Source of the DNA: Myxococcota bacterium
GTDB lineage: Bacteria; Myxococcota; B64-G9
Assembly (NCBI GenBank): GCA_022710975.1
Contig: JAKLGA010000025.1
Span: forward strand, 1-63,089
Reading direction: 5' to 3'
Length of the DNA: 63,089 bases
The translations under genes and the position numbers were made by a program. The number at the start of each line of letters is the position of its first letter. Position 1 is the first letter of the stretch. Of this stretch, positions 39,946 to 62,068 are shown in pieces. Under the pieces are notes generated by a model. That model saw only the letters and a program-made list of their open reading frames with translations, was not told where the DNA came from and searched no databases.

Positions 39946-40746
39946 TCACCTGGGCCTCGCGGACCGCCCGCACCGGAACCCGAGGTCGTCGACCGCGTAC
40001 AGCGGGCCGTACCTGAGCCAGAGCGAGGCCCGCTGAAAACCCGGGTCGCCCAGGCTCCACGAGCCGCCGCGCATCACCCGGGCGAGCCCCGCCGAGGAAG
40101 AGGTCCACTCCCACACATTCCCGCTCATGTCGCACAGCCCGCTCACGCTGTGGCCCGCGGGCTTCGAGCACACGGGCCAGGTCGAGTCCAGCCCGCAGCC
40201 CCTGCCGCCCTGGCTCCAGATCGCCCGCTCGCAGCTCACCTCCTGATCACCCCAGGGGTACTGCCGCTCGCCCCCGTCCGAGGCCTCGGCGAACCACTCC
40301 TGTTCGGTCGGCAGCCGTGCGCCTGCCCATTCGCAGAAGGCGGTCGCCTGGTTCCAGTCCACGCAGTTGACCGGGTGCTGCTCCCGGCCCGCCTGGCCCC
40401 AGTTGCAGCTCCAACCGGTCTTCGGCGCGCTGCACCTCTCGGCCTCCACGCAGGCGCGGTACTGGGCCACGGTCACCTCGCTCCTGGTGAGCTCGATCCC
40501 GGCCGGACGGCTGAAGACCCACTCGAGCGCTGCGTTCCCCGCCGGTCCCCCGTCCGGCCTGCCAGCCTTCTTCTTCTCCTCCTCCTCCAGCGCGAGCTTC
40601 TGCGCGAGCTCCTCCTCCAGGAGCCTCTGCTTGCTGCCATCTCCGGTCTGCTTGCGCGGCCTGGCGTCCTGGGCCAGGGTCCCGAAGGTCGTGGTCAGGG
40701 CGAGGCCCAGGTAGAGCAGGCCTGCGGCCATGGGGCGGATGCGCAT
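39946..40746 (-). CDS. SUMF1/FGE-fold (EgtB-PvdO type) exported protein
   Basis: The ATG at 40746 follows GGAGGT, five bases upstream. The 266-residue protein has a signal (1-23), a Lys/Glu-rich helix (about 35-60) and then the SUMF1 fold: T-R-S-E-V-T-V-A-Q-Y, H-P-V-N-C-V-D-W, A-R-L-P-T-E-Q-E-W, G-N-V-W-E-W-T and R-G-G-S-W. The two active-site cysteines of true formylglycine-generating enzymes are not seen, so it is probably a non-catalytic or unrelated-activity member. It resembles the larger SUMF1-fold gene at about 44-45 kb. It is divergent from the TetR gene. Confidence 0.87.
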   Translation of the reverse strand: MRIRPMAAGLLYLGLALTTTFGTLAQDARPRKQTGDGSKQRLLEEELAQKLALEEEEKKKAGRPDGGPAGNAALEWVFSRPAGIELTRSEVTVAQYRACVEAERCSAPKTGWSCNWGQAGREQHPVNCVDWNQATAFCEWAGARLPTEQEWFAEASDGGERQYPWGDQEVSCERAIWSQGGRGCGLDSTWPVCSKPAGHSVSGLCDMSGNVWEWTSSSAGLARVMRGGSWSLGDPGFQRASLWLRYGPLYAVDDLGFRCGRSARPR

Positions 40747-40985
40747 CCGGGACCTCCGGGGTGATCCTGGGAGTGATGGTAGGCCTGGCCAGGCGTGGCG
40801 GGCAAGGTAGCGCGGGCCATCGGCTGCAGAAGGGCTGCGCCCACGGCCTCCTGTAGCTGCTGTGGGTGGTTGGCACCAGCGTACCATGGGGACACGCCAA
40901 CGAGACGGAACGCCTCCTGGAAAGGTGCCGGGACCCGCGCCGGCTTCCGCCCCGCCTCGTGTCGGCCCTTGTACTTCTTCGAACA

Positions 40986-44016: not shown

Positions 44017-45180
44017 TCAAGGACCGACGGCCGCGGAACCAGCACAGCGAAACCCGAAGACGCTGTACCCGACGACCGGGGGAATTCCGCGGCGGGTGGA
44101 GGCACGCGAGCCCCAGGTACCGAGGTCCCAGGAGCCGCCCCGCATAGAACGGTTTTCTCCGCTGCTCAGCCCGGCCGGGTCGCGCTCGGGCGAGCCCTGG
44201 TAGTAGCCCTCTCCATACCAGTCCGCGCACCACTCCCACACGTTCCCCAGCATGTCGTACAGGCCGAAGGCGTTGGGCTGCTTCTCGCCCACGGGGTGGG
44301 TCACACCGCCAGCGTTGCCTCTGTGCCAGGCGATAGCATCGAGTTCCCCGTACTTCGGCCTGGTCGTCCCTCCCCGTGCCGCCTTTTCCCACTCCGCCTC
44401 GGTGGGCAGACGCTTCCCGGCCCATTCGCAGTACCCCTTGGCCTGGCTCCAGTCCACGCAGTTGACAGGGTGGCTCTCCTTGCCTGTGACACCCCAGGTG
44501 CATTTGTCGCCCTTCGTCGGCGCGCTGCACCGACCTGACTGCATGCACCTCTGGTATGCCGCCACCGTGACCTCGGTCGCGTCCAGGGAGAACTCACTCA
44601 CCCAGACCTTATGGGCCGGCTTCTCGGGGTCCTCGCACTCCTCGTCCCCGGGGCTGCAGCCCATCAGGAACTCTCCAGCCGGAATGAGCACCATGCCCTC
44701 TGGTAAGCCCCTGAGCTCCACCTCCACCTTGCTGACCTGCTTTTCCACGAGCGAGAGCGCCTTCTTGATCGAGCCCAGCTTGGCGTGCCGGACCTCGACC
44801 TCCTTGGCGCACACCGACACCTTGAACCGCCCCGGAGTGGTGCCCACCTTCACTCCGTCGACCAGTACGTCCGCCTCCAGGTCGTTGCCCTTCCCGTCCT
44901 TGGCCTTCACCTCGAGCCCGGCCTCCTTAGCCGCCGGGCTGACCGACACCTCGCGGACCTGGCCGAGTTCAACCTTCACCCGCTCGCCGGCATCCGCATG
45001 GCAGGGACCGCCCACCAAGACCTCGTAGCCACCGGGCGCCACCTCCTTCTTCTCCAGGGGTGTGTTCCCGGACGGCTGGCCGTTGATGGTCACCGGCAGC
45101 CCGGCTGGCGTCGAGCGGACGGTGAGCCAGCCGAAGGCCGGCTTGAGTTCCCATTCGAGCTTGGCGCCCTTGACCACCAC
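44017..45180 (-). CDS. PEGA plus SUMF1/FGE-fold protein, probably 5'-truncated
   Basis: The open frame encodes 387 residues from a GTG and can be read upstream only about 11 codons to a TAG. It begins inside what looks like a PEGA repeat (F-G-W-L-T-V-R-S-T-P-A-G-L-P-V-T-I-N-G), then another PEGA-like unit (about 85-150). The SUMF1 fold (about 160-385) has G-E-F-L-M-G-C, D-A-T-E-V-T, H-P-V-N-C-V-D-W-S-Q-A and G-N-V-W-E-W-C. Relatives usually carry a signal or kinase part before the PEGA region; here that part is missing and base composition drops just upstream. I infer truncation by island insertion. Active-site FGE cysteines are not seen. Confidence 0.75.
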   Translation of the reverse strand: MVVKGAKLEWELKPAFGWLTVRSTPAGLPVTINGQPSGNTPLEKKEVAPGGYEVLVGGPCHADAGERVKVELGQVREVSVSPAAKEAGLEVKAKDGKGNDLEADVLVDGVKVGTTPGRFKVSVCAKEVEVRHAKLGSIKKALSLVEKQVSKVEVELRGLPEGMVLIPAGEFLMGCSPGDEECEDPEKPAHKVWVSEFSLDATEVTVAAYQRCMQSGRCSAPTKGDKCTWGVTGKESHPVNCVDWSQAKGYCEWAGKRLPTEAEWEKAARGGTTRPKYGELDAIAWHRGNAGGVTHPVGEKQPNAFGLYDMLGNVWEWCADWYGEGYYQGSPERDPAGLSSGENRSMRGGSWDLGTWGSRASTRRGIPPVVGYSVFGFRCAGSAAVGP

Positions 45181-46888: not shown

Positions 46889-49800
46889 TCACCACACGTG
46901 GAGCTTCACCCTCAGATCCTCGACCATGCTCTCAGGCAAGGGTATCAGATCTAGCTGGCCAGAGGCACCCTCGGCCAGGTCATGCTCGTCCGAGCCCTCA
47001 CGGTCCGCGGCGGCCAGGTCGCCGCCGGTCAGGAACTCGAAGGCCTGGGCACGCAGGCGCAGCTCCTCGAACATGCGCTCGTCATACGTCCCAGCCAGGA
47101 ACGGCAGGCCGATCTCGAGGAAGGCCCCATCTTGCCTGGCGTGCTCCCGGTCGGCCTTGCTACCGATGCGATCGGTGCGGCCGGTGCGCTGCTCGAGCAC
47201 GGCCGGGTTCCAGGCCAGGTCGTAGTGGATCACGTTGCGGCAATGACGGTGGAGGTCGATGCCCTCCTGCCCCACCGAGGTGCAAATGAGGATCTCCGGT
47301 TGCAGTGGGGTGTTGAAGCCGATGAAGATGCGGCTCCTGGTCTCCTTGCCTTGCGAGCCGGTCACCAGGGCGACGTACTTGTCCTTGAAGCGTGTCGCTT
47401 CCAGGAGGGCTCCCCGGGCGGTATCCGTCTTACTGGCATCACCGCTCGCAGCCCGCAGGTCCCCCAGGAAGGCGACCATGCGGTCGGCCATGCTCTCCAC
47501 CTGGCCTTCCAGGGGCGCGAAGAACCGCTCCACCAGCAGGTGGCCCCAGCCCTCCTCGGCCAACTCCGAGCGCTCGGGTAGCAGGCGCAGGAGAACCGAC
47601 TCCCGAAGCAGCGTCCGGCGGAGAGCCTGGAGGACCAGCCGCCGGGTGGACCAACCGGTCTCACCGTCCTCCGTGGTCAACGCCTGGAGCTCGCGGTGCA
47701 GGGCCCTGACAACGGCAGGCGCGCGGTCCTTCACGGCCAGCGTCCGCGGGTCGGCCCCCAGCCACAGGCTCGGTCCCTGGCTATACGCCCCAAAGATGCC
47801 TCCTGCGGTCGTCTGGGTCCGCTTCCAGCGGTCCTCGAGCACGACGGCCAGAGCCGCCACCTCGGATTCTCCAGGTTCGGCGGTCTTAGGTTCGTAGACG
47901 GTGTGGATACCCCGTTCGTCGAACTCGGCGCGCTCCGCACCCTCGTCCCCGTCCTCATCCTGGTCGTCATCCACGTCCGGATCATCGCCGTAGGGCCGCT
48001 TGACCCACATTGGATCGACCATCCTCTCAAGGAGGGCCTGACCCACGGCATCGATCCCGGGCAGATGCAGCAGCCGATGCGCGAGCACGTGCTCGGTCGC
48101 CCGGTTCAGGAACACCCGGTCCACCTTCTCGCCACGGAAATCCTCGTTGCGGTAGCTCAGGGACAGCTTCGCCAGCTCCCCGAAGTCCTTACCCTGGAGA
48201 TCGAGGTCCTCGGGGTCGAAAGGCGCGGGAGTGCCCTCGGGCCGTCCCCAGTACCAGGACCACAGCACCCGGTCCAGCCCCAGGGTGATGAGGTCCCGGT
48301 CCCGTCCCTGCAGGCGGCTGCGGAGTGCCTTCAGCGACTCCTTGCCACCCAGGCAGCGCTCGCGCCTCCGGGCCAGCTCCTTGCGAATGTGCTCGTCGAG
48401 GATGTCCCGGAGCCGCTCGGCCGTGTTCAACCGGAAGCAGAAGATCAGGGTCTTCTCACCCGCGCGCCAGGCCGCCATGACCCGCTCGGCCATGGCCTTC
48501 ACCTTGGGATGCTGCGGGTCCTGTTCGGGCGAGACCAGCTCCCGGAGCAGATCGAGGTAGGCTTTGCCCTTCCCAGTAGCGCCGAGCTCCCGGTCCACCT
48601 TGCGGCCCTTCTCGCTGTGAAGCAGGGTCGAGTAGCAGCCGGTGAGCTCGCTCCCCAGCGCGGTTTTGCCCCTGCCCTTGTTCCACAGGGACACGCAGCG
48701 CATGAGCAGGTAGTGGGGCAGCTCCCCCTCGCCTCGCACGTCGATGCCCGGTGAGGAGTGGATGAGGTGTCGGTCCGACCGCTTGGCCACAGCGGACACA
48801 CCGGCGGGGTACTCCCGGCCCACCAGGAAGGCCCTGTGCTGGGTCCGCCGCCTGTGACGGACGACCAGCGCCCCCAGCTCCTGGGAGTAGTCCGCGTTGT
48901 AGGCGTAGAGCTGCAGGGCCACTCGGACCAGCTCGCGCAGGTTGGGGTCCAGCGGGGCCACGGCCGGATCTACGATGGCGCGCATCGCCTTCTCGTCGAG
49001 CGTGCCCTTCTTGGTGGCCAGCTCGTGGAGCTGTTCCCGCGCGGTCACCAGGGCTGGGGAGCGCCAGACCCTGTCCAGGTCGGCGCTGCTCACGTCAACG
49101 GGCAGCCTGCGCCAGGCCTTGGCTACCGCACGGCTGCAGAGCTCGGAGCGCTCCAGGACCGGACGGATGGTCTCCTCGCGGTGCTTCCTGAGATGCTCCT
49201 GGCGTTCCTTCCGTTCTCCTGCGCCGTTGCCTATGCCCATGTGGTCGGAGATCTGGAGCACGCTCAGGATCTCCTCGGGCCGGAGCTGGAACGGGGTCGC
49301 GGTGAGCAGGAGCGCCCGCCGGGCGCGGGGCGCCAGGACCTCGATGAACCTGTCGTAGCCGTTCTTGTGGTTCTTCCAGTTGTGCGCCTCGTCCACGATC
49401 ACCAGGGGGATGTGCCGGAGCAGCAGGTGCGGAACGATGGACCGGTAGACTTCCGTAAGCCGGTTGTCGAGCTTCTTGAACTCCTCGTCTCGGTTGCGTG
49501 CGTAGGGCTGGGCAATGGCGCGGCAATCCTCTGGCAGGCGGTCGAGCTCGTCCCTGTCCCGAAGCTTGCCGAGCGCCCCCACCGCCTCGGCCTGGGTGAA
49601 GATCTCTCCGCTCTCGCGCTCTTCCTCGTCCATGAGGGCGTCAGGATTGGAGGGCCAGCCCTCGGGCGCACCCTTGAGCAGGTGCGCGCGCTGGTCCCGG
49701 GTGAACGCCCGAGCCCAATGGCGGAACAGGGCCTGCAGGATGAACCGACGCTTGAGGTCGTACTTGCTCAGCTTCCCGCCCGAGAAGATGCCCATGCTGG

Positions 49801-50263
49801 CTACGATCACCCGGTCGTTGACGCTCCGGTCCCGGAGCGCCAGGGCTAGCTCGTCCAGACGCTCAACCCTCCTTGGGGCGAACCAGGCCTGGGCCTCCTT
49901 GCGGAAGGGCTCCTTGACGCAACGCTTGACGAACTCACCTACCTCCCGCACCCACTTGTCGAACAGCGCCGGGTTCTGCGGGGTCAGGACCACCACCCGC
50001 CGGTAGCTGCTCGAGAACTCCGGCTCCATCTCGGCCTTTCGGAACTCGAGCAGGATCGAGTAGGCCACGGCCAGAGCCACGAAGGTCTTCCCCATGCCGA
50101 CTTCGTCCGCCAGGATCTGGAGCTCCCATCGGCTGCTCGGCCGCCGGTGGTAGAAGCGATCCAGGATCTCCTGGGCCGTGGCCATCTGCCGCTTGCCGTC
50201 GTCCGGGTCCTTCAGCCGGGTGTGGTCCAGCCCAAGGTCGATCTGGTCCGAGAAGGCGATCAC
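46889..50263 (-). CDS. SNF2-family helicase of the DrmD-like type
   Basis: The 1124-residue superfamily 2 ATPase has Walker A D-E-V-G-M-G-K-T (53-60), D-E-A-H at 291-294, L-L-T-A-T-P-F soon after and, in the second motor domain, E-G-I-D-L (from 1000) with Q-R-T-G-R-T-D-R-I-G (1025-1034). A long insert (about 650-900) separates the motor halves. The type resembles DrmD of DISARM and other phage-defence SNF2 proteins. Its ATG overlaps the PLD gene's TGA in an ATGA, so the two are translationally coupled. It would be the DNA-translocating motor of the module. About 145 bases separate it from the MqsR gene. Confidence 0.9.
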   Translation of the reverse strand: MIAFSDQIDLGLDHTRLKDPDDGKRQMATAQEILDRFYHRRPSSRWELQILADEVGMGKTFVALAVAYSILLEFRKAEMEPEFSSSYRRVVVLTPQNPALFDKWVREVGEFVKRCVKEPFRKEAQAWFAPRRVERLDELALALRDRSVNDRVIVASMGIFSGGKLSKYDLKRRFILQALFRHWARAFTRDQRAHLLKGAPEGWPSNPDALMDEEERESGEIFTQAEAVGALGKLRDRDELDRLPEDCRAIAQPYARNRDEEFKKLDNRLTEVYRSIVPHLLLRHIPLVIVDEAHNWKNHKNGYDRFIEVLAPRARRALLLTATPFQLRPEEILSVLQISDHMGIGNGAGERKERQEHLRKHREETIRPVLERSELCSRAVAKAWRRLPVDVSSADLDRVWRSPALVTAREQLHELATKKGTLDEKAMRAIVDPAVAPLDPNLRELVRVALQLYAYNADYSQELGALVVRHRRRTQHRAFLVGREYPAGVSAVAKRSDRHLIHSSPGIDVRGEGELPHYLLMRCVSLWNKGRGKTALGSELTGCYSTLLHSEKGRKVDRELGATGKGKAYLDLLRELVSPEQDPQHPKVKAMAERVMAAWRAGEKTLIFCFRLNTAERLRDILDEHIRKELARRRERCLGGKESLKALRSRLQGRDRDLITLGLDRVLWSWYWGRPEGTPAPFDPEDLDLQGKDFGELAKLSLSYRNEDFRGEKVDRVFLNRATEHVLAHRLLHLPGIDAVGQALLERMVDPMWVKRPYGDDPDVDDDQDEDGDEGAERAEFDERGIHTVYEPKTAEPGESEVAALAVVLEDRWKRTQTTAGGIFGAYSQGPSLWLGADPRTLAVKDRAPAVVRALHRELQALTTEDGETGWSTRRLVLQALRRTLLRESVLLRLLPERSELAEEGWGHLLVERFFAPLEGQVESMADRMVAFLGDLRAASGDASKTDTARGALLEATRFKDKYVALVTGSQGKETRSRIFIGFNTPLQPEILICTSVGQEGIDLHRHCRNVIHYDLAWNPAVLEQRTGRTDRIGSKADREHARQDGAFLEIGLPFLAGTYDERMFEELRLRAQAFEFLTGGDLAAADREGSDEHDLAEGASGQLDLIPLPESMVEDLRVKLHVW

Positions 50264-52386
50264 GACCCCACCTCCTCGTCCCTGCGCAGGCTGGCCACCA
50301 TGTTCTGGTACCTACGGAAGGCGCTTCGCCCGCCGAACTCGGCCCGGCCTCCCTGGATCTCGGCCAGGAGCCGCTCGAGCTGTCGCAGAGCCTCCTGGGC
50401 GTGCTCGCGCCAGACTTTGCCCGCGTCGACCTGGTCCGCGGCCTGGAGAACCTCGCGCACGCAGGCCATGAGCTCGACCACCTCGAACGCCCCCGCCACC
50501 GCGGTCCGGCGCCCGGTCTTCACCGCCTCGAGAGCCTTCCGTGAAAGTGCAAGCGGGCTCAGCGGGCCGAGCAGGGCAATCCGCATCCTGCTGGCGATCA
50601 ACCTGGAATCCGCCAGGACAGCGCGGACGCCGGGCAAGGCCTCGACGAATTCCCGGACCTGGTAGGACTGGATGCGGGACTTGTCGACCTCGCTCTCGGT
50701 CATGGGCTGGAGGCCCAGAGGCGACCGTTCCTCCTCGCTTCCGGCCACGGCCTCCTCCCAGGAGATCCGGCCCCGGAAGTAGTCCAGGAGGCTCGCCTCG
50801 CTGAGATCGTCACGCAGCTCGCCGAGGGGCAGCTCCAGCCGCCCCTCCTCCGAGAGGTTGACCGGGAAGGCCACCGGCGCCAGCGCCGCGGGCCAGGCCA
50901 CCAGCACCTGCTTCTGGGCGAGGAGCCGCCGACGCAGGTCCTCGTCCAGGGCGACAGCGTGCTCGACAAGGGCAGACTTGCCGCTCGCCTCGAGCAAGAG
51001 GGTGTCGGGGCCGCCGTCTCCACCGACGGAGACCGCCCAGGAGGCGGGCTGTTTGTCAGGCTCGGTCACCAGGACGAGGCGGAGGTCCTGCGTCCCGGGC
51101 GAGCAAGGTTCCAGCCGCGCCTCGCGCAGGAACATGGGCCAGCAGGGCGCGTCTTCCTCCTTCACCTCGATCTCGTACTCGGCCACGGCCTTCGATGCCG
51201 ACGGGCCGATCGTCAGCTTCTCGCCTTCGAAGGGAGGCAATAGCGCCGTGAGCGACTCCCTGTCCTTGCCCTGGCGGAGCAACGCCACCCCGGCTTCCAC
51301 GTTGGGTACGACATGAGGCAGGCCGAAGCCCCAGCCGCGAAGCGTGAAGTTGGCCGAGCCCAGGTAGGCCAGCGATGATGACTTGCCCGTGAGCAGCACC
51401 ACCTTGGCATGGAGCGGTCGCACGCCCTGGTAGTCTTCGATGTCGGGTGCCTCGCCGCTATCGGGCACAAGCCTCACGGCCCGGGCTGTCCCGGTCGCGC
51501 CCAGGGCAGTCAGGTCGAAGCGCCAGTGGTCCGCTGGCAGCAGTGGCACGAGTCCATGCTGGGTGGCGGCGAAGCCGGAGCAGTAGAGCTCGACCTGGGC
51601 ACCGGAGGCCAGGCATTCCCGACGCCGGAGCTCGCCCAGGAAGGTCCCCAGGGTGGAGGCTGCGTGGCCCTTGGACCAGAAGGGCGACACGATGGCGATT
51701 CGCTCCACCGGCTCGTCGGCGGGCCAACGCTCCAGGAAGCTCCTCCACAGCGGCCGGCCAGCGCCGGACCAGAGGAAGGCGTCCTCTGGTCTGTCGGCAC
51801 GAACTAGCCGGGCCGCCCGCCAGGTGCGCAGCTTGTCCCCTGCATCCTGGAGGACCTGGCGGTCCGATCTGTCGAGCCAGCGCCCGAGGACTTCGCCCAG
51901 GCCGTCGATGGCCGAGAGCAGGAGTGAAGCAGACTCGATCTGCTTGGGGCCGGCCTCGATCCAGGCGGCCACTTCGCGGTTGGTGCGGTAGCCCGGTTGG
52001 GTCAGGTTGGCGCTGCCCACAAAGAGGCGGACCGCCTCGCGGTGCACCAGGAGCAGCACCTTGGCGTGGAGCCGGCCCTGCGGCAGGCCCACGGGCCGCA
52101 GGTTGATGTGGATGTGGCTGGGTCGGCCATGGTAGCGGGTGGCCTCCATGAGCACCGAGGCACTGACGAGCTCGGCCAGCTTCCCGATCAGGGCGACCTG
52201 GCTCGTTCGGCTGCGGTCGTCCCAGGCGCCCAGCCCCAGCACCGAGGGCAGGAAGTCCGTGTCGAAGAACTCGGGCTGCAGCTCGTAGGTAGTGGCGAGC
52301 AGGCCCTCCAGCGGTCCGTGCTCGGCCCCGAGCACCAGCCGGTCCACGAGCTTCCGGGCCTCGATGCTCTGGTCCTTGGGCTTCAT
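50260..52386 (-). CDS. Phospholipase D-like protein with two HKD motifs
   Basis: Start at ATG 52386, overlapping the previous gene's stop (ATGA), gives 708 residues. Two HKD-type half-sites are visible: H107-A-K109 with G-S-A-N-L-T at 124-129, and H326-A-K328 with G-S-A-N-F-T at 343-348. Two such halves make one PLD active site, so a monomer could be active. The remaining C-terminal 350 residues are of unknown fold. PLD nucleases accompany helicases in DISARM (DrmC) and other systems, but DrmC is usually smaller with one motif. The likely role is DNA cleavage guided by the coupled SNF2 motor (inference). Confidence 0.88.
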   Translation of the reverse strand: MKPKDQSIEARKLVDRLVLGAEHGPLEGLLATTYELQPEFFDTDFLPSVLGLGAWDDRSRTSQVALIGKLAELVSASVLMEATRYHGRPSHIHINLRPVGLPQGRLHAKVLLLVHREAVRLFVGSANLTQPGYRTNREVAAWIEAGPKQIESASLLLSAIDGLGEVLGRWLDRSDRQVLQDAGDKLRTWRAARLVRADRPEDAFLWSGAGRPLWRSFLERWPADEPVERIAIVSPFWSKGHAASTLGTFLGELRRRECLASGAQVELYCSGFAATQHGLVPLLPADHWRFDLTALGATGTARAVRLVPDSGEAPDIEDYQGVRPLHAKVVLLTGKSSSLAYLGSANFTLRGWGFGLPHVVPNVEAGVALLRQGKDRESLTALLPPFEGEKLTIGPSASKAVAEYEIEVKEEDAPCWPMFLREARLEPCSPGTQDLRLVLVTEPDKQPASWAVSVGGDGGPDTLLLEASGKSALVEHAVALDEDLRRRLLAQKQVLVAWPAALAPVAFPVNLSEEGRLELPLGELRDDLSEASLLDYFRGRISWEEAVAGSEEERSPLGLQPMTESEVDKSRIQSYQVREFVEALPGVRAVLADSRLIASRMRIALLGPLSPLALSRKALEAVKTGRRTAVAGAFEVVELMACVREVLQAADQVDAGKVWREHAQEALRQLERLLAEIQGGRAEFGGRSAFRRYQNMVASLRRDEEVGS

Positions 52387-53717
52387 GCCGACCTCGACGC
52401 TTCGAGCAGGGCCAGCACCGACCGGAGGCGGTACTCGTGGGCCGGGATGTTTTCCGGCGCAGTCACCTCGCGCTGCCAGCGTCCCACCCGCAGTATTGTC
52501 AGGCTCAGGCCCTTGTCGCCACGCTTGACCCACGAGGACTTCTTATGCCCGCCATCCCACTTGCCGCTCTGGATCTCGGAGTGCCGGTCGATGAGGGCAT
52601 CGATGAAGCCAGTCCCGGAATCGCAGGTCGCGCTCAGGGAATCCAGGAAACCTCGGGTGTCCTGGATGCGCAGCCACTCCCCGACGGCCTGCAGGTACTT
52701 CTGGAGCTCGTCCAGGGTGCGCGTGAGGTTCTGGATCTCAGCCGGCAGCCTCTTTCGCGCCTCACGAAGGGCATCGTCCTTGGCCAGTTCTTCGGCGCAG
52801 GCCAGGCCGGTCGCCGCCTGGCGGCAGCCCATGAGGATGCGCTCGAAAGCCATCAGGGTGAGGCGGTAGCAGCGCTCGTAGGCCAGGATGGCGCGCATGG
52901 CGGCCCGAAGATCCGCGTCTTCGCCCTTCTCCGACAGCTTGCCCGAAACCCGTTCGAGCCACTCGAGCTCGCGCTCCTTCTGCTTCAGGGGGTACTTCTG
53001 CAGGAGCCTCGCGGTCCGCCCCCTGTTCATCTCCCGCTCGTCGAACAGGGCGTCCCCGAGCAAGCGTCCTTCGACCGGGCCAGGGTCCGCGGTCAGAAAG
53101 GCCTTCTCCCCCCATTTCGCAAGGGTGGCGAGCCCTACTTCCCCATTTTCCCGCACGGCGCGCTTGAGTGAGTCGGGTGCCTGGGACTCTCCGAAAAAAG
53201 CCTCTGCGAGCCTCTCGCCGGAGTCCGGGGTGAGCCCGTAGGCGGTTCTCTCCAGGAGCCGCATCTGCTCGGCCACGGCTCCGTAGATACCGAGTGCGCC
53301 GTAGGGCTCCTGGCGGGAAAGCAGCCGGAACTTCGAAGAGCAGCTCGTGGCCGAGCGGCGGTCCAGAGACTCGGCCTCGGCGAGCGCGTAGGTCACACCC
53401 CGGAGCCCGCTGCATTCCTCCTTCCTACGCCCAGCCGCCAGCACGTTGGCCAAGGCCCAGAAGCGCTCGAATCGCAGGGCGGTCTCGCGCCGCTTGGCGC
53501 GGGCATTCCGTGGCGCCTCGCCCTGTTCCACCTCAGCGAGCGGAACCCCGGCGCACAGGAGGGACAGGTAGCGGGGCTGATTGGCCACGTTGGTCAGGCC
53601 GGGCAGGATCTGGTCCGCCAGGAACAGGTATCCCCGCTCGAAGCCCATGGGGTCCACGCTGGAACCCGGGAGGTCACTGGGGTCGAACGATGACAAGAAT
53701 GCAAGATTGGTTCTCAT
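52383..53717 (-). CDS. Unknown defence-associated protein, first gene of the SNF2-PLD operon
   Basis: The 444-residue product opens with a distinctive segment: L-S-S-F-D-P-S-D-L-P-G-S-S, D-P-M-G-F-E-R-G-Y and L-P-G-L-T-N-V-A-N-Q-P-R-Y-L-S. The P-G-L-T...R-Y wording recalls DUF6361-type proteins, but I cannot place it in a family. The rest is largely helical and charged, with coiled-coil-like parts (about 330-370). It shares an ATGA overlap with the PLD gene. Constant pairing with PLD and SNF2 genes would make it a target-recognition or adaptor subunit. No catalytic motif is visible. Confidence 0.8.
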   Translation of the reverse strand: MRTNLAFLSSFDPSDLPGSSVDPMGFERGYLFLADQILPGLTNVANQPRYLSLLCAGVPLAEVEQGEAPRNARAKRRETALRFERFWALANVLAAGRRKEECSGLRGVTYALAEAESLDRRSATSCSSKFRLLSRQEPYGALGIYGAVAEQMRLLERTAYGLTPDSGERLAEAFFGESQAPDSLKRAVRENGEVGLATLAKWGEKAFLTADPGPVEGRLLGDALFDEREMNRGRTARLLQKYPLKQKERELEWLERVSGKLSEKGEDADLRAAMRAILAYERCYRLTLMAFERILMGCRQAATGLACAEELAKDDALREARKRLPAEIQNLTRTLDELQKYLQAVGEWLRIQDTRGFLDSLSATCDSGTGFIDALIDRHSEIQSGKWDGGHKKSSWVKRGDKGLSLTILRVGRWQREVTAPENIPAHEYRLRSVLALLEASRSA

Positions 53718-53752: not shown

Positions 53753-54736
53753 TCAGAAAGGTACCTTGATTCGTCTCTTGAGTTTCTCATCCATCCTACC
53801 TGTGATGATGAATCTGAAGAAGTCCTCCTTTTCAAGTAGTCTTATCTGTCTGCTCCCAGGCTCACCCTCACTTTCGACTCTTTCTCGTGCTTCTTCTGTA
53901 AAGCCAAATACTGACACAAAACAAAGATTAGCATCGCCAATTTTCTCAAGAATGTCTTCGATTTCTGGCCAATCTACTTTGGAATCCTGGCGGCGTTTTA
54001 CCTGAACTCGCCATATATCAAATCCAAGCTCACCGCGATCGAAACGCGCCTCAGCATCAATTACTGGCTGGTTGCCGCCAACTTTCCCCACCTCTGCACC
54101 TTGCGCTCGAAAGTACTCGGCGACTAGAGTTTCCCAGTCCTTCTCATTAAGCACCATGCAGCGGTCCATCACAATTTTCTGTAGATTCTGATAGGCAGCT
54201 TCCAGTTCTGGTTCCGCTGCAGCGATCTCTTCAGGCGATACCTTGTTGGCTAGGCCCTCGATCGTCTCGTAGCCCCAGCTGATGTCCCAAAACGACATTC
54301 GCGGGCCCAACAAGCTTCCTTTCAGTGCCCCATAGAAGTCGAGGATCGGGATTGGATCAATCGGATACTCGACCTTACGATAATGCCAAATGTCAGTCTC
54401 ATCATTCGTCTCAAAGTCTCGATACATTGGGTCCGATACAACTCTGCAAATTCGTACGTGCTTCCTGGGTGGGTCATAGTAGAGCATGTAGTCGCCAACA
54501 CTGCATTCATGATAAAAAGACCAAAGCTGTCCAGCAGACCGTCCGGCAGCTCCGCTGCTTGAGCAGTAGTCAGGGTAGTTCTTCCGAAGAGCGGTCTTTA
54601 AGACGCCCCAATCTTCCTTCTTTATAACTTCCGGGTCGATCTTGGGCCATCCGAGGCCAACAACTCGGCGCTTTTCGCAGAAGTCCACACAGATTCCCCC
54701 GGAACCCAGCTTGATCGCCCAAGCTCGCTCAGCCAT
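53753..54736 (-). CDS. Mrr-like restriction endonuclease with N-terminal EVE-like domain
   Basis: The 327-residue AT-rich gene product has two parts. Residues about 1-130 resemble an EVE/PUA-like module (W-A-I-K-L at the start, D-Y-M-L-Y-Y and R-I-C-R-V-V later). Residues about 195-300 form an Mrr-type PD-(D/E)XK nuclease core: W-E202-T-L-V-A-E-Y-F, D227 and V-Q245-V-K247-R-R. EVE domains read modified bases, so cleavage of modified phage DNA is a sensible prediction. Its start overlaps the SEC-C gene's stop by 8 bases, so they are coupled. Base use is much lower in GC than the PLD operon that follows. Confidence 0.82.
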
Positions 54737-56615
54737 GCTTATTCTCCCCTTTTTTGTCTATTTCATTTCCCTCTTTAGTTCTCGAACTATTGGGTCGAAA
54801 TAGAACTTCTATGCTCCTCTCCATTGACCTGTTGAATGCCAGCTGCATCTCTATAATCGGTTTCAGTCCCCTTGGATCACAATGCCTGCTTAGGAACCAA
54901 CTCCGAAACGACTGTGCAATTCCTTCGTTCACAATTACATTTCCGAATTCTATCCTTGATACATACTCTATTAGGTATCTGAAAATAGTGATTCCGCCGC
55001 CAGCCGCGACGAATGCCATCAGCTCTTCTGAGTCAACAATATGCCATCCTGCAAATCTAGATCTGTTTTCGTCAAACCATTCACTTTCTTCTTCATTGAG
55101 TCGTTGCTTCACCTCAGATTCTACATATTGCCTGAAGATACCCATATGGAAAATGGGTGGCATCGTATTCACAACACCCAGCAGAAATATTCTTCCTGCG
55201 GTAAGAACGCGTCTACTGGTAGTTTCATTCTCAGGATTCAGGCGTCCCTGCTTCGCCCCCTTCTCTAGGTTGAAGAGGTACTTGATTGACTTCCAAATAG
55301 CCTCTCCCAGCGCACCATGCACATCTTTCTTTATAGCATCAAGATCATATCCAAAAAATGCCCCCGGAGAAAGGCTCTTCAACTTAGCTTGTATGAGTAC
55401 TAGACTATCCCCATTGAAAATTCCGAAATCTGGACTATCTAGACTTTCTGGCTTGCCTTTTCTGCTCAAGTACCTATGCTGACGGAATAGGTGTTCTGGA
55501 TTTATTGTTTTTTTCAAGCAGAAGGCAACGAGTTCTTCAAACCTATTTCCCATTCTCTCGCTAAATTCATTGGTCCAATATGATGGTTGCCCAAGTTTCT
55601 TACAGTGTTCTCTTGCCAGCGCAAGCGTCTGAAACAAAGTCAGACCGTAAGCTGCCATTCTCATGTAGGGATGCGGACCGCAAAGAAAAACACTTTCATT
55701 GAATTTCAACACTGGCGTAGTCGAGAAGAACGCCATAACAAGAGCCTCATTACGATAGTGTTTGTAATCAGAATGTATTTTACTTCTAATGTTTCTGGTT
55801 TCGCAGCTCTTAGTATCAAGAATACTTCTAAGTATTTCAATTAGTTTTGCACTGTTAGATGATTCGCTAAATATCTTTTCAGGGCTAAAGCCGTCGTATT
55901 GTTGTGAGTGAGCCCATAAGGCCAGCATGATTGATGCATACTCTCTTGTGTTACAACCAAATGCCTCTTGGAATAATATGTCATATGCGCTTGCATCCAA
56001 AGAGGCACCAGATACTATATCCTCCAATTCCAGCAGGTATAGAGTGCGTGCAATCTGATGTATGTAATCACCCTGAAGGCTGGTTTGCCCGCAGAGTAGT
56101 CTCAAAGTCAAGAGCGCTCCTTCGCTCTCCTTTTCATGCGGTTGCAGTGTGTTTGGGATTCCCTCGTAAACACCACTGGCTCGATATAATAGCTGTTGAA
56201 CATCATATTCATTGAGGCAAGAAATCTCATGACCTAAAAATTGAGGCAGGGTCTCTCTGTTGAATGCCGCCAGAATTATGGCTCCGTGCTGCCATGCATG
56301 GAAAGCGCTGCTTTTTGGCATGCCATTCATTTCAATGTCAATACGAGCGGATCTAGTCGCTGAAGCGGCTACCGTATGAGGATCGCATGGAAGACTTTCT
56401 ATGTAACTGCTAAAATCCTCGAAAGAAATACGCGGAGAATTGGGTCCAAACCGAATGTTGGATTTCGTTTTTTCTGGAGGCTGTTGATTCGCAGCTCTTA
56501 GTAGACAGCATTTCTTGTGTTTTAAGCCGCTTCCACATGGGCATGGATCGTTGCGTCCGATTTTGATGCGCGAACTCACAACAATACCTGTTCTTCTACC
56601 TTTGGACGGCACCAC
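54729..56615 (-). CDS. SEC-C motif protein with cryptic PD-(D/E)XK nuclease-like core
   Basis: The 628-residue product starts at a GTG; another GTG at about residue 13 is an alternative. A SEC-C zinc motif lies at residues 21-37 (N-D-P-C-P-C-G-S-G then K-K-C-C). The central 300 residues are helical and unknown. Around 355-415 there is F-E360-E-L-V, D396-F-G-I-F, then V-L-I-Q-A-K411-L-K, the order expected of a PD-(D/E)XK nuclease fold with Q-x-K in place of E-x-K. The gene is AT-rich and overlaps the Mrr-like gene. A nuclease-effector pair is inferred; the fold call is mine and not tested. Confidence 0.75.
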
Positions 56616-56767: not shown

Positions 56768-59700
56768 TCAAGTTTGGGTCAGGTAGATCCCCATTTCCTC
56801 CAGATGCACCGCCACGCTGCCCTCGTCCTGCAACGCCTCCGCGGTGATCTCGACCACGTGGAAGCCCTTCATGCGGGCCTTGGCCCTGAGCAGCTTGTCC
56901 TTCCTGGCCCGCTCCGGGTCGCCGTGGAGGGTCCTGCCCATGCCATCGATGAACACCAGCACCTTCTTCTCCGGGTAGGCGAAGTCGGCCACGGTGTAGG
57001 ACCCGTCGTCGAAGATCACCTTGAACTGGGAGGCCGTGGGCGCCGGGAAGTCGTGCCGCTTGCACACGGCCACGAAGTCCGTCTCGGCCTTGCTGTCGTC
57101 CTTCTTGCTGTCGAGCTCGGCCTGGGCCAGCGCGTGCGGGATAGCATGCGGCAGGTCGACGGGCAGCTGCAGCTCGGAGAGCAGGTTCACCGCCGCGTGC
57201 CGGTCCAGGAACTCGTGCGCCATCTGGTTCCGGAAGTGCTTCAGACAGGAGTAGCAGGCCTTGTCGCACTTGGAGGCGCAGTGCTCGAGCGCCTCCCGGG
57301 CCCGCTCCACGATGACCTCCCAGAAGGCGAGGAGCTGCGGCAGGAAGCCTGAGCCGCCGGGCATGGGATCGAACATGACCAGCCACCTGCCCCCGTGCTC
57401 GTCGGCCTCCACGAACCCCTCGATCTCGGTCGTGCCCATGTCCAGCACCTGGCGCGCCCCGATACGCAGCGCCTCCAGGATGTTCAGGGCCGGCGCGTCG
57501 TCCTTGAACGGCCCGAGGTGCAGGGTGTCGGAGGCGTCCTCCACGTGGAGCGCGTACTTCCCGGTGGTGGGCCGGCCGTGGAGCTTCTGGTGGTCCTCGG
57601 CGAACTTCGCCAGCTCCCCCTCGCTGGCGTAGGGCGAGCGGGTCGCGCCGCAGGCCGTGCACAGCGGGAACAGGCTGAAGCCGGGCTCCTTGCTCACCGG
57701 GACCCCGAGGTTCACCAGACGGAAGTCCTGCCGCCGGAGGTACTTGAGGGTGTAGGGCCCGACCTTGCCCTCCTGCCCGCCCGCGTGCCGGGCCAGGGTG
57801 GAGCCCAGCACCCGGAAGCTCGAGCGCCGCCGGTCCTTCTCCCGGTCGTCGATGTCGTCCTGGGGGTGCATCTCCACGTCGGTCAGACGGTAGGAGCCGA
57901 AGGGCACCGGCGCCCGCGCGTGGCCACCCTCGACCTTGGCCTGGCCCTTTTCGAACACCCGGTCGTGCTCCGGGTCGAAGACCATGGCCTTCTGCAGCAC
58001 GGCGGTCAGCGTCTTCTCGTCCCGGGCCTTGACCTTGTAGAACTCGAGCTTCCGCACCCGGAAGACCTTCTTGTTGGCGTAGATGAAGTTCGCCGGGGTG
58101 AGCTCCCGGAGGGCCACGGCGGAGGGCCGGGAGAGCTCCAGGTAGGGCTGCAGGCACTGGGCGGTCACGCTGTCCCGGGCGAGCGCGTAGCCCGGGAAGA
58201 ACCCATCCGAGCCCAGGTAGCTGAGCGCGTAGTTCTCCTGGCGCCGGTCGTCCTGGAGCACCTCGAGTGCGTGCTGGAGCCTGCGGCGCTGGTTCTGCTC
58301 GTCGTCGCTCAGGCTCTCCCCGTGGTCCTCCACCTTGCGCAGCTCGGCCAACTCGCTCCGGAAGGTCTGCACCTGGTCGAACAGCCGGTTCACGTGGGCC
58401 TCGAGGTCCGCCTGGAACTCGGCCACGAAGCGCTCGAGCGCCGGCCGGTCCACGGCCTCCCGCTCCTCGGGCGGCCAGGTCGCCGTGAACGTTCGCTCCA
58501 GCATGGCCACCAGGGCTGGCCCGTGTCTGGCGACCAGGGCCCGCAGGTCCTCGAGCCCGCGGGGCCGGTCGAGGTACCTGACCTTGCTGCCGTCCGGTAC
58601 CCGCTCGGCGAAGTAGGCCGAGACGTGGGCCGGGAAGGCCCTTTCAAGAGCCTTCTTGTCCTCGGGGCCAGCCAACGCCCGGAGCGCGGTCAGGATGGCC
58701 GAGTGGGCGTGCTTGCGGATGAGGGGCTCGTTCCGCAGCGAGAAGGCCGGCACCCGGATCTCGCCGGCGATCATGGCCCGGGGGTCCTCGAAGAAGTAGC
58801 GCCCGTGGGCCCCCGCCTGGCAGTGGGTGAAGACCACGGCGATGCGGTGCCGGCGGCCGGCTCGGCCGGCCCGCTGGGCGTAGTTGGCGGGCGTGGGCGG
58901 GACGTTCCGGAGGAGCACCATCTCCAGCTTGCCGATGTCCACCCCGAGCTCGAGGGTCGGGGTGCACACCAGGCAGTTGTACAGCCCGCCCTTCTCCCGC
59001 TTGAACTCCCGCTCCAGCTTCTGGCGCATGTCCTTGGGCACCTGGGCCGAGTGCTCCCAGGGCTTCAGCGGCACGAACTGGGTGTGGGTGTACTGGTAGA
59101 CGTCGTGGTGGCTCTCGTCCCGGCCCGCCTCCTTGAGCGTCCCCTTGCAACCGTACTCCGGGCAGGCCCCGGTGGGCGTGGTCACGGTCTGGGCCCGCTG
59201 GCAGGCCGGGCAGAAGAGACGCCGGTCGGTGAGCCGCACGCCCAGCTTCTCCACGTTGATCTGCTGGATGCCGCCCGGCACCTTGAGCGCCTGCTGCTTG
59301 CCGTGGTGCTTGTAGGTCAGCGTGGTCCCGACCAGGACCTCCTTCTCCCTCAGCCATTCCCACAGCTCGGTCAGGAACTCATCGCGGGCCTTCTTGTCCG
59401 GCTCGCCGCCCAGGCCCTTCTTGAAGATCACCTGGGCCACGGAGCGGCCGTTCTTGGCCAGCCAGCCCCTGCTGTAACCCTTGCCGTAACCCGTGTCGTC
59501 GCTCCGGATGGGCACGAGTGCCTTGGGCCGGTACTGGTCGTACACCCCCACCAGGCCCTTCCGGACCTCCTCGTCCTTGTCGTTCCACTTGCGGCACAGG
59601 AGCGGGTCCGAGACCACCCCGCGCCGCCTGTGGTTGTCCAGGATGAGCCGGACGACGCGGGCGAGGGCGGCGGGCGCCGCGCCGAGCCGCTTCGACCACT

Positions 59701-62068
59701 CCTCGTAGAAGCGCGGGGCGTCCTCGACGCCGATGCCCTGGGTCAGCACCTCGGCCAGCGCGAGCGTCTCCAGGCTGCCACGGCGCTGGCCGGAGGCGGC
59801 GAACTCCTCCAGCAGGAACCACTTCACCCGGATGAGGTTGTCGTCCTCGTCCCAGGTGCCGGGCTTCAGCACCCCTTGCTGCTTGGCGAGATCCACCACC
59901 CGGCTGGTGAGCTTCTCCAGGCTCCAGATCTTCTCCCGGTCCTCGGCGAGCACCTGGACCAGGAGGTGCCGCAACCGGAACCGCCGGGAGCGCTCCTCCA
60001 TCCAGCCGGCCTGGAAGGCGGCGTCCTGGCGGCTGTCGGTGAAGATGAGGAGCTTCTGCAGCGACTCCTCGTGCATGGCCGAGAGCATGCTCTGGGCAAG
60101 GATGGTCACGTCCGCCACCTCGCTCGAGCGCGCGGGCGTGACGATCTCCTCGTACCCCTTGGCCGAGGTGCCGCAGGCCCTGCACTTCTTCATCTCGCCG
60201 TCGAAGCGCCGCACCCCGACCAGCGTCCCGGCCGTGCGGCACTTGCCGTTCAGGCAGGTGTCCGACTTCGCGTCGTGGAGCGCGCCGCACACCCGGCACA
60301 GGAACGCGTCTTTTCCTTCGCTTGGGCCTTGATCCTCGTCTTCCTCCTCATCGAGGGCCACCAGGTGATCGGTGAGGTACACCAGGGTCTCGTCCGGTCC
60401 GGGCAGATCGTCCCGGCCAGGAACCCGGGTCAGGCTGACCCCGATCGCGCCCTCGCGGACGGGCTGGCCGGCGAACAGTCGGAAGTAGTGCTGGCCGCAC
60501 GAGCGGCAGAGCCACAGCGGCATCACCTTGGCTCCGCCCTCGGCCTGGCCGGCCTCGACGTCGAAGCGCACCTCCGGCTTGCCGTCCTTGTCCAGCGAGC
60601 AGCCCAAGCCCAGGAAGCCCTGCACGAAGTAGTGGAGCCGTGGCCTCAGGATGGGCTCTCCCTCGAGCTGGGCCAGCGCGCCCAGCACGAGGTAGCAGAG
60701 CAGCTCGGCCACCAGGTCCTCGTCTCCGGCGCCGCCCCGGTCGAGGGCCTTCATCCGGGGCAAGGCCTTGGACAGAAGGTCCGGGCTCTTGAACACGTCG
60801 CCGAGGAGCGCCACCAGGCGGTTTCCCAGGAGCAACCGGGCCACGCGCTCCATGGCTTTCGTGCCTGCAGGCGCGGCCCGCCCGCACAGCCGCTCGCAGA
60901 GCGCCAGGAGCGCGGGTCCGAGATCCTCGACCTCGTCCTGGAGCTGGAGCACCCGCGAAGCCTCGAGGAGCTCGGCCAGGAGCTCCCGCGGTTTGGCCGG
61001 GATGGGCGGCAAAAAGGAAGCCTTGCCGGGGTCGGGCAGGCTCTCGCGCTTGTACCGCTCGGTGACCAGCTCGACCTCGACCTCCGGGACGCCGAACAGG
61101 CGGGAGGCGAACTTCCGGGTGGCCGCCGCGGCGTCCACCTTGGACTCGGTCTCCTGGACCGTGGCCGAGGTGCCGACGCAGATCACCTCGTGGGCCTGCT
61201 TCCCGGCCACGTCCCGGAGCCGGCGGATGAGGCAGGCGGTCTCGGAGCCGAGCGCGCCGGTGTAGGTGTGGACCTCGTCCAGCACCAGGAAGCGGAGCGG
61301 CGCGCCGCGGAAGAGGTCGAGATCCTTGTCGCGGAGGAGCAGGTACTCGAGCTGGGAGTAGTTGGTGAGCAGGATGCGGGGCTTCCGCGAGCGGATCTCC
61401 GCGCGGTGGTAGCACTCCTCCCAGGGCAGAGGAACCTTGTCCTCCTTGCCCTCGGCGAGCAGCGTCCGTTCGGCCGGGGTGTAAGCGCGGGGCTCGCTGA
61501 GCTTCCCCTGCTCGGGCGCATCGTCCTCCGGGGTGACGCCGGTGTACCGGCCGAAGGTGACCCGGGTGCCGGCGAGCAAGGGCCGGAGGCGCTTGAGCTG
61601 GTCGTCCACCAGGGCGTTCATGGGGTAGACCAGGACGGCGACCACGCCCTCGGGGGCCTTGTCGTCGCGGAGGCGAAGGCAATGGTCCACGATGGGCAGG
61701 AGGAAGGCCTCGGTCTTGCCCGAGCCGGTGCCGGTGGCCACCACGGTGTGCATGTTGTTCTTGATGGCGCGGAGGGCGAGCTCCTGGTGCTTGTGGACGC
61801 TGGCGAAGGAGAAGACGCTGCGGATGGCCGGGTGCAGGCAGAGGCCGTCCTCGCGGCAGAGCTCGTCCACGGTTGGGCCGGTCTCGAAGGGGCGGGTCAG
61901 ATAGACGTAGGGGCCCTTGGCGATCAGCCGCTCCCCGCCGATGTCGTGCTTCAGGTGCTCCCGCACCTGGGCCGCCATGGAGCGGTCGGCGATGGGGAAC
62001 GTGGTGAGCAGGTAGCGACCGAACTGGTCGATCACCTCGGTGCCGAACTGGACGGGATTCAGAGTCAC
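56768..62068 (-). CDS. Giant DEAD/DEAH helicase with DUF1998 region and Vsr-like C-terminal domain
   Basis: The 1766-residue protein has Walker A T-G-T-G-S-G-K-T at 112-119, D-E-V-H at 264-267, V-G-T-S-A-T and a second motor half with Q-R-A-G-R-A-G-R-R near 1065. Several zinc-ribbon-like cysteine pairs lie between (about 520-640 and 980-1010). Near 1569-1610 is the DUF1998 signature M-P-G-G-S-G followed by C1597, C1601, C1605 and C1608. Residues about 1660-1760 look like a Vsr/PD-(D/E)XK nuclease (D1695-F-A-Y-P-E, then V-F-I-D-G, H1715). Size and domains resemble DruE of Druantia and MrfA. Base composition matches the host better than its neighbours. Confidence 0.88.

What the first reader, a model, noticed from the sequence alone, without database searches (positions are those of the whole stretch)
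46889..53717. Translationally coupled trio: unknown 444-aa protein, double-HKD PLD, SNF2 helicase
The three genes share ATGA stop/start overlaps at both junctions, so they are expected to be made in fixed ratio as a complex. SNF2 plus PLD recalls DISARM, but there is no methyltransferase, the PLD protein has two motifs and about 700 residues, and the first subunit belongs to no family I know. This looks like a compact, methylation-independent defence unit.
Basis: partly seen in the sequence, partly recalled or inferred. Interest (0 to 1): 0.85.

Follow-up and report, generated by a model that had tools for sequence, protein, structure and literature searches.

The report
Divergent Azaca-like three-gene defence cassette
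Three genes that travel together across many bacteria most likely encode a DNA-cutting anti-phage machine that is a distant, uncatalogued branch of the already known Azaca defence system, so the find is real but extends a known kind rather than opening a new one.

Summary
The trio is real: on the minus strand, U444 (444 aa), a two-motif PLD protein (708 aa) and an SNF2 ATPase (1124 aa), with 4-base stop/start overlaps (ATGA, then GTGA). It is a conserved unit. Every relative found in Myxococcota, Planctomycetota, Verrucomicrobiota, Acidobacteriota and others keeps the A-B(-C) order wherever the contig is long enough. A second copy in the same genome shares exactly these three genes (93% DNA identity, dN/dS about 0.1). 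'No known family' does not hold. The PLD's best PADLOC hit is ZacB; the SNF2 hits PDC-M27C, ZacC and DrmD. Profile comparison links U444 strongly to PDC-M27A-like proteins and, through intermediates, to ZacA. Genuine Azaca loci have the same order and similar sizes. Trees separate this branch from Azaca and PDC-M27. The PLD model resembles Tdp1/PLD3, one chain with two HxK...N...E sites, unlike one-motif DrmC. U444 is all-helical, with no clear fold match. It is not DISARM: neither DrmA/B nor a methyltransferase travels with it. Best reading: SNF2 translocase plus Tdp1-like nuclease plus helical adaptor restricting foreign DNA. Defence is inferred from homology and island context; the mechanism is untested. 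Novelty: new variant of a known kind.

The parts
52383..53717 (-). U444 (A subunit), 444 aa, all-helical; divergent member of the PDC-M27A/ZacA superfamily; motif S-x-D-P-[LM]-G ... LPGLTNVA-x-x-PRY near the N-terminus and GKFDxGRRKMPW-like segment near the C-terminus
50260..52386 (-). PLD-superfamily nuclease (B subunit), 708 aa; residues 1-409 modelled as a tandem PLD fold like Tdp1/PLD3 with two HxK...N...E sites; ~300-residue C-terminal extension
   Evidence: (ZacB 2.6e-22)
46889..50263 (-). SNF2-family ATPase (C subunit), 1124 aa, GTG start; motifs DEVGMGKT, VDEAH, QRTGRTDRIG
   Evidence: (PDC-M27C 5.4e-40, ZacC 1.3e-30, DrmD 3.1e-24)
52383..52386 (-). ATGA overlap, U444 stop / PLD start
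50260..50263 (-). GTGA overlap, PLD stop / SNF2 start
53753..54736 (-). Mrr-type restriction endonuclease, 35 nt upstream of U444; same operon direction, not part of the conserved cassette
   Evidence: (Mrr_cat 1.5e-8)
54729..56615 (-). SEC-C motif protein with weak similarity to GapS1; neighbour, not part of the cassette
56768..62068 (-). YprA/DruE-like helicase with MZB (MrfA Zn-binding) domain; defence-island neighbour, not part of the cassette
   Evidence: (DruE3 6e-112)

Best explanation
The trio is a complete A-B-C anti-phage (anti-foreign-DNA) cassette of the Azaca/PDC-M27 kind, forming its own uncatalogued branch. C (SNF2-family ATPase) most likely moves along double-stranded DNA. B is a single-chain Tdp1/PLD3-like phosphodiesterase whose two HxK...N...E half-sites should form one metal-independent active site working through a phospho-histidine intermediate, and it cuts or degrades the DNA that C engages. 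A (U444), an all-helical protein, acts as the adaptor or licensing subunit that holds B to its motor and keeps the nuclease off host DNA. Shown here: the genes, their conservation as a unit, purifying selection, intact catalytic motifs, predicted folds, homology to Azaca and PDC-M27. Inferred: defence function, complex formation, translocation, DNA cleavage, and the role of A.
For: PADLOC: B to ZacB 2.6e-22; C to PDC-M27C 5.4e-40, ZacC 1.3e-30. A: the 43% homologue hits PDC-M27A at 1e-4 and the Myxococcaceae homologue at 2e-23. Profile-profile A vs M27A-like 97%, E 1e-10; vs intermediate ZacA-like proteins 98.6%, E 7e-16 over 301 columns; control A vs PLD 0.1%. Those intermediates link to genuine ZacA, E 2e-7; the merged A profile vs ZacA 72.5%, E 3e-5, in the same motif register. 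B vs ZacB 97%, E 2.5e-11; C vs ZacC 99.7%, E 3e-25. Genuine Azaca loci have the same order and similar sizes. Conserved trio. Exact second cassette copy, dN/dS about 0.1. Tdp1/PLD3 fold, Z about 19-21; SauUSI and NgoAVII restriction nucleases also match. Defence neighbours: YprA/DruE-like helicase and Mrr in the window, an ARMADA-like operon beside the C24 copy, BrxL and PglZ (L036).
Against: U444 itself hits no PADLOC model even at E 10. Its direct profile match to genuine ZacA is weak alone (3%, E 0.014), and the A homology concentrates in the N-terminal part. No experiment. SNF2 hits are partly generic for the helicase C-terminal domain. Some members of the wider family have A+B without an adjacent SNF2 gene, so the motor may not be obligate.
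Confidence: 0.72

Rival explanations
1. A DISARM-related or split ARMADA/DISARM system: the trio is the effector half of the longer operon led by the YprA/DruE-like helicase in the window.
For: Both copies in this genome lie directly downstream of operons that include a YprA-family helicase; SNF2 scores DrmD 3.1e-24 and PLD scores DrmC 1.2e-9.
Against: None of the 14 related loci has a homologue of the window's YprA-like helicase within the fetched flanks. The two helicases in this genome are only ~28-31% identical while the trio is 93% identical, and DNA homology stops at the trio's ends. Best matches are ZacB and PDC-M27C/ZacC, not DISARM models; NCBIfam DrmC/DrmD scores lie far below cut-off.
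Confidence: 0.1
2. A type IV-like restriction system that attacks modified phage DNA, a three-chain analogue of SauUSI (PLD nuclease plus SF2 motor), with A as the modified-base reader.
For: The PLD model matches SauUSI and NgoAVII among PDB hits; no modification enzyme is conserved with the trio.
Against: No reader fold was found for A, and no domain by Pfam.
Confidence: 0.25
3. A DNA repair or chromosome-maintenance module (Tdp1-like end processing plus a RapA/SNF2 motor), not defence.
For: B resembles Tdp1, a repair enzyme; weak RapA similarity of C.
Against: Patchy distribution: the close branch is in 2 of 193 genomes of the phylum while scattered over distant phyla. Neighbours in several loci are defence genes or an integrase; homologues are named defence proteins.
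Confidence: 0.07

Closest known systems
Azaca (ZacA-ZacB-ZacC)
   Same: Same gene order, strand and similar sizes (A ~410-450, PLD ~600-670, SNF2 ~1090-1210 aa in Myxococcota loci). B and C homologous at profile level; A linked through intermediates.
   Different: U444 is not recognised by the ZacA model; C and B fall outside the Azaca clade in trees; the PLD protein is somewhat longer.
PDC-M27 (PADLOC candidate: M27A-M27B-M27C)
   Same: Same three components and order; C's best PADLOC hit (5.4e-40); A profile match 97%, E 1e-10.
   Different: Separate clade in the SNF2 and PLD trees. PDC-M27 is a catalogue candidate; I found no paper on it in the library.
DISARM (DrmA/DrmB/DrmC/DrmD/DrmM)
   Same: PLD plus SNF2 proteins in one operon.
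   Different: No DrmA/DrmB and no methyltransferase travels with the trio. DrmC has one PLD motif (own knowledge; PADLOC DrmC models are ~150-380 positions); here one chain carries two.
ARMADA type I
   Same: An ARMADA-like operon lies directly upstream of the second copy.
   Different: [quoted passage not shown] the trio shares only an SNF2-family motor.
Tdp1 / PLD3 / SauUSI (PLD-superfamily DNA phosphodiesterases)
   Same: Tandem PLD fold in one chain (Tdp1, PLD3); PLD nuclease driven by an SF2 motor (SauUSI).
   Different: Sequence identity ~12%; B has an extra ~300-residue C-terminal region and a separate motor protein.

Membership tests
Azaca | ZacB-type PLD protein | tested here: met
   Best PADLOC hit ZacB 2.6e-22; hhalign 97.3%, E 2.5e-11 against ZacB from genuine loci
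Azaca | ZacC-type SNF2 helicase | tested here: met
   ZacC 1.3e-30; hhalign 99.7%, E 3e-25; PDC-M27C scores higher
Azaca | ZacA protein recognised by its model | tested here: inconclusive
   No PADLOC hit for U444; relative L044 3e-3; homology only through intermediates
Azaca | Gene order A-B-C on one strand | tested here: met
   Same order in genuine Azaca loci and here
Azaca | Falls within the Azaca clade | tested here: not met
   Trees place it outside; hence filed as Azaca-like, not as Azaca
Azaca | Anti-phage activity | not testable with these tools
   Needs plaque assays
PDC-M27 | M27C-type SNF2 | tested here: met
   5.4e-40
PDC-M27 | M27B-type PLD | tested here: inconclusive
   9.8e-8, below ZacB
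PDC-M27 | M27A protein | tested here: inconclusive
   U444 no direct hit; 43% homologue 1.1e-4; profile-profile 97%
DISARM | DrmA helicase and DrmB (DUF1998) core | tested here: not met
   None travels with the trio; the window's YprA-like helicase fits DruE best
DISARM | DNA methyltransferase in the operon | tested here: not met
   None among the six genes of the window operon; none conserved in relatives
DISARM | One-motif PLD DrmC | tested here: not met
   Two-motif single-chain tandem PLD

The most novel reading that the evidence does not exclude
A+B is a portable Tdp1-like nuclease core that is paired with interchangeable SF2 motors. In this branch, Azaca and PDC-M27 the motor is the adjacent SNF2 protein. 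In plasmid loci with A+B but no third gene it may be borrowed from a neighbouring type I restriction system: in Myroides A+B sits between HsdS and HsdR, and in Prevotella and Roseovarius next to a type I system.
Probability: 0.3. Interest if true: 0.65.

Novelty: new variant of a known kind. Interest (0 to 1): 0.42.

Why it matters
It shows that Azaca and the PADLOC candidate PDC-M27 belong to one larger superfamily that spans many phyla and includes branches that current defence-finding models miss, because the A subunit is too divergent. It also gives a concrete mechanistic lead for Azaca, whose mechanism I found no report of in the library searched: B looks like a single-chain Tdp1/PLD3-type, metal-independent DNA phosphodiesterase rather than a DrmC-like dimer. 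That is directly testable by point mutation and biochemistry.

Tried and rejected
DISARM membership: rejected (no DrmA/B, no methyltransferase, two-motif PLD). Six-gene operon as the functional unit: rejected, because relatives and the second copy keep only the trio. U444 fold: Foldseek against PDB gave nothing below E 0.3 and the second aligner best Z 6.3 with unrelated chains, within the range expected for helical proteins; a weak local match to the MukF N-terminal domain (Z 4.5) was not pursued. Solved-structure sequence search for A and B: nothing significant. Viral contigs: none. Plasmids: no U444 relative by tblastn. Direct ZacA search in the own genome: no credible hit. Papers on ZacA/B/C mechanism or PDC-M27: none found in the held library. 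In the first SNF2 tree one row was out of frame; it was redone.

Full report
Observation. The three ORFs are present at the stated place on the minus strand. The order is U444 (52383-53717), PLD (50260-52386, 708 aa from the ATG that overlaps the U444 stop) and SNF2 (46889-50263, GTG start). The A/B 4-base overlap is kept in 11 of 11 related loci and the B/C overlap in 8 of 11.

The trio is a unit. A scan of one genome per bacterial/archaeal species with the U444 family found 14 loci in Myxococcota/Deltaproteobacteria, Planctomycetota (Planctomycetales, Pirellula, Phycisphaerae), Verrucomicrobiota, Acidobacteriota (Bryobacterales, Solibacteraceae), Omnitrophota and Lindowbacteria MAGs. In every locus whose contig reaches far enough, the PLD and then the SNF2 gene follow directly. 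No homologue of the YprA-like, SEC-C or Mrr neighbours was found in those loci. The own genome carries a second copy on contig C24. DNA homology to the window runs from 46892 to 53687 at 93.5% identity, i.e. the three genes and nothing else, with dN/dS 0.12, 0.11 and 0.10. The assembly has about 2% estimated contamination, so the two copies could in principle come from two strains.

Identity. PADLOC: the PLD protein's best hit is ZacB (2.6e-22); the SNF2 protein's are PDC-M27C (5.4e-40), ZacC (1.3e-30) and DrmD (3.1e-24); U444 has none. Pfam finds PLDc_2 and SNF2/Helicase_C domains only; NCBIfam scores stay far below cut-offs. The 43% identical U homologue hits PDC-M27A at 1e-4 and the Myxococcaceae U homologue at 2e-23. 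The near-U profile finds the A proteins of Methylocystis and Sphingopyxis plasmid loci at 1e-10 and 7e-9, which in turn hit ZacA at about 1e-3, and Polaromonas at 1.5e-5. Profile-profile: U vs M27A-like 97%, E 1e-10; U vs these intermediates 98.6%, E 7e-16; negative control U vs PLD 0.1%; intermediates vs genuine ZacA 93.8%, E 1.8e-7; merged U+intermediate profile vs ZacA 72.5%, E 3e-5; U alone vs ZacA not significant (3%). With the merged profile all four M27A-like rows and four of six ZacA rows score above every shuffled decoy. Genuine Azaca loci from Myxococcota genomes (ZacA model up to 3e-134) show the order ZacA-PLD-SNF2 with similar sizes. B and C are homologous to their ZacB and ZacC. 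SNF2 and PLD trees put the window's branch apart from Azaca and from PDC-M27 (several long branches, so the exact branching order is unsure). I therefore file it as an Azaca/PDC-M27-type system, a separate uncatalogued branch. That Azaca is an experimentally shown defence system (Millman et al. 2022) is my own knowledge; library papers list Azaca as a defence system with a PLD-like domain (PMC10952713) and a helicase ZacC (PMC12278908).

How it probably works. The PLD model (pLDDT 79.7) over residues 1-409 matches human Tdp1 (Z about 21) and PLD3 (Z about 19-20), and SauUSI/NgoAVII nucleases appear among Foldseek hits. Both half-sites read HxK...N...E and all eight residues are invariant in the 11 aligned family members. 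They lack the Asp of the classical HKD motif, as Tdp1 and BfiI do (own knowledge). A single-chain, metal-independent nuclease is therefore expected. The SNF2 protein has intact ATPase motifs; SNF2 proteins are usually double-stranded DNA translocases (own knowledge). U444 is predicted almost all-helical with good confidence (pLDDT 86.3) and no convincing fold match. The family's conserved GKFDxGRRKMPW segment (GKWDGGHKKSSW in the window) is basic and may contact DNA or B; this is inference. The role of A as adaptor/licensing subunit is inferred from its strict partnership with B.

Context. In the window the trio follows, 35 nt downstream, a DruE/YprA-like helicase, a SEC-C protein and an Mrr nuclease. 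On C24 it follows an ARMADA type I-like operon: YprA-like helicase, BrxHII/DrmD/DpdE-like SNF2, DrmMI-like methyltransferase and a 278-aa protein; ARMADA is defined in PMC12458937. In L036 the trio lies between an SMC-like ATPase gene and BrxL/PglZ genes. These are defence islands.

Wider family. On plasmids there are A+B pairs with no SNF2 gene directly following: Myroides (between HsdS and HsdR of a type I system), Prevotella and Roseovarius (next to type I systems), Sphingobium (behind an SNF2-related gene), and Undibacterium, Sphingopyxis, Polaromonas and Halobaculum without an annotated helicase directly next to them. A further Myxococcus branch (L016, L017, L021, L022) is also a trio; its A (L016) is missed by PADLOC. 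This suggests A+B as a nuclease core with exchangeable motors, which I give as the novel case (probability 0.3).

Verdict. A real, conserved, probably functional defence cassette; not DISARM; not categorically new; a new variant of the Azaca/PDC-M27 kind. Methylation independence remains untested.

Noticed in passing
window 56768-62068 (-): 1766-aa YprA/DruE-like helicase (DruE3 6e-112) with MZB domain and a C-terminal stretch that by eye resembles a Vsr/PD-(D/E)xK nuclease; followed by a SEC-C/GapS1-like protein and an Mrr nuclease: possibly a Druantia III-like or ARMADA-like operon of its own.
   Followed up: partly
L014 1-12489 (contig C24): ARMADA type I-like operon (YprA-like helicase, BrxHII/DrmD/DpdE-like SNF2, DrmMI-like methyltransferase, 278-aa unknown) directly upstream of the second trio copy.
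   Followed up: partly
L053 7965-12082; L054 7977-12115; L057 7971-12034; L055, L048, L049, L056, L058: Two-gene A+PLD pairs without a directly following SNF2 gene, several inside or next to type I restriction operons (Myroides: between HsdS and HsdR); seen in Pseudomonadota, Bacteroidota and one haloarchaeon.
   Followed up: partly
L016, L017, L021, L022, L091: Another uncatalogued trio branch in Myxococcaceae (A ~463-529 aa, PLD ~773-889 aa, SNF2 ~1000 aa); the A scanned (L016) has no PADLOC hit.
   Followed up: partly
L060 1731-3989 and L035 6824-9073: A gene pair (metallo-beta-lactamase/RMMBL protein plus ~320-aa unknown) lies next to the trio in two distant genomes (56% and 28% identity between them); possibly another defence or RNA-processing pair.
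   Followed up: partly
window 39946-40887 (-) and 44017-45180 (-): Two ORFs that look, by eye, like formylglycine-generating-enzyme (SUMF1)-type proteins outside the defence island.
   Followed up: no
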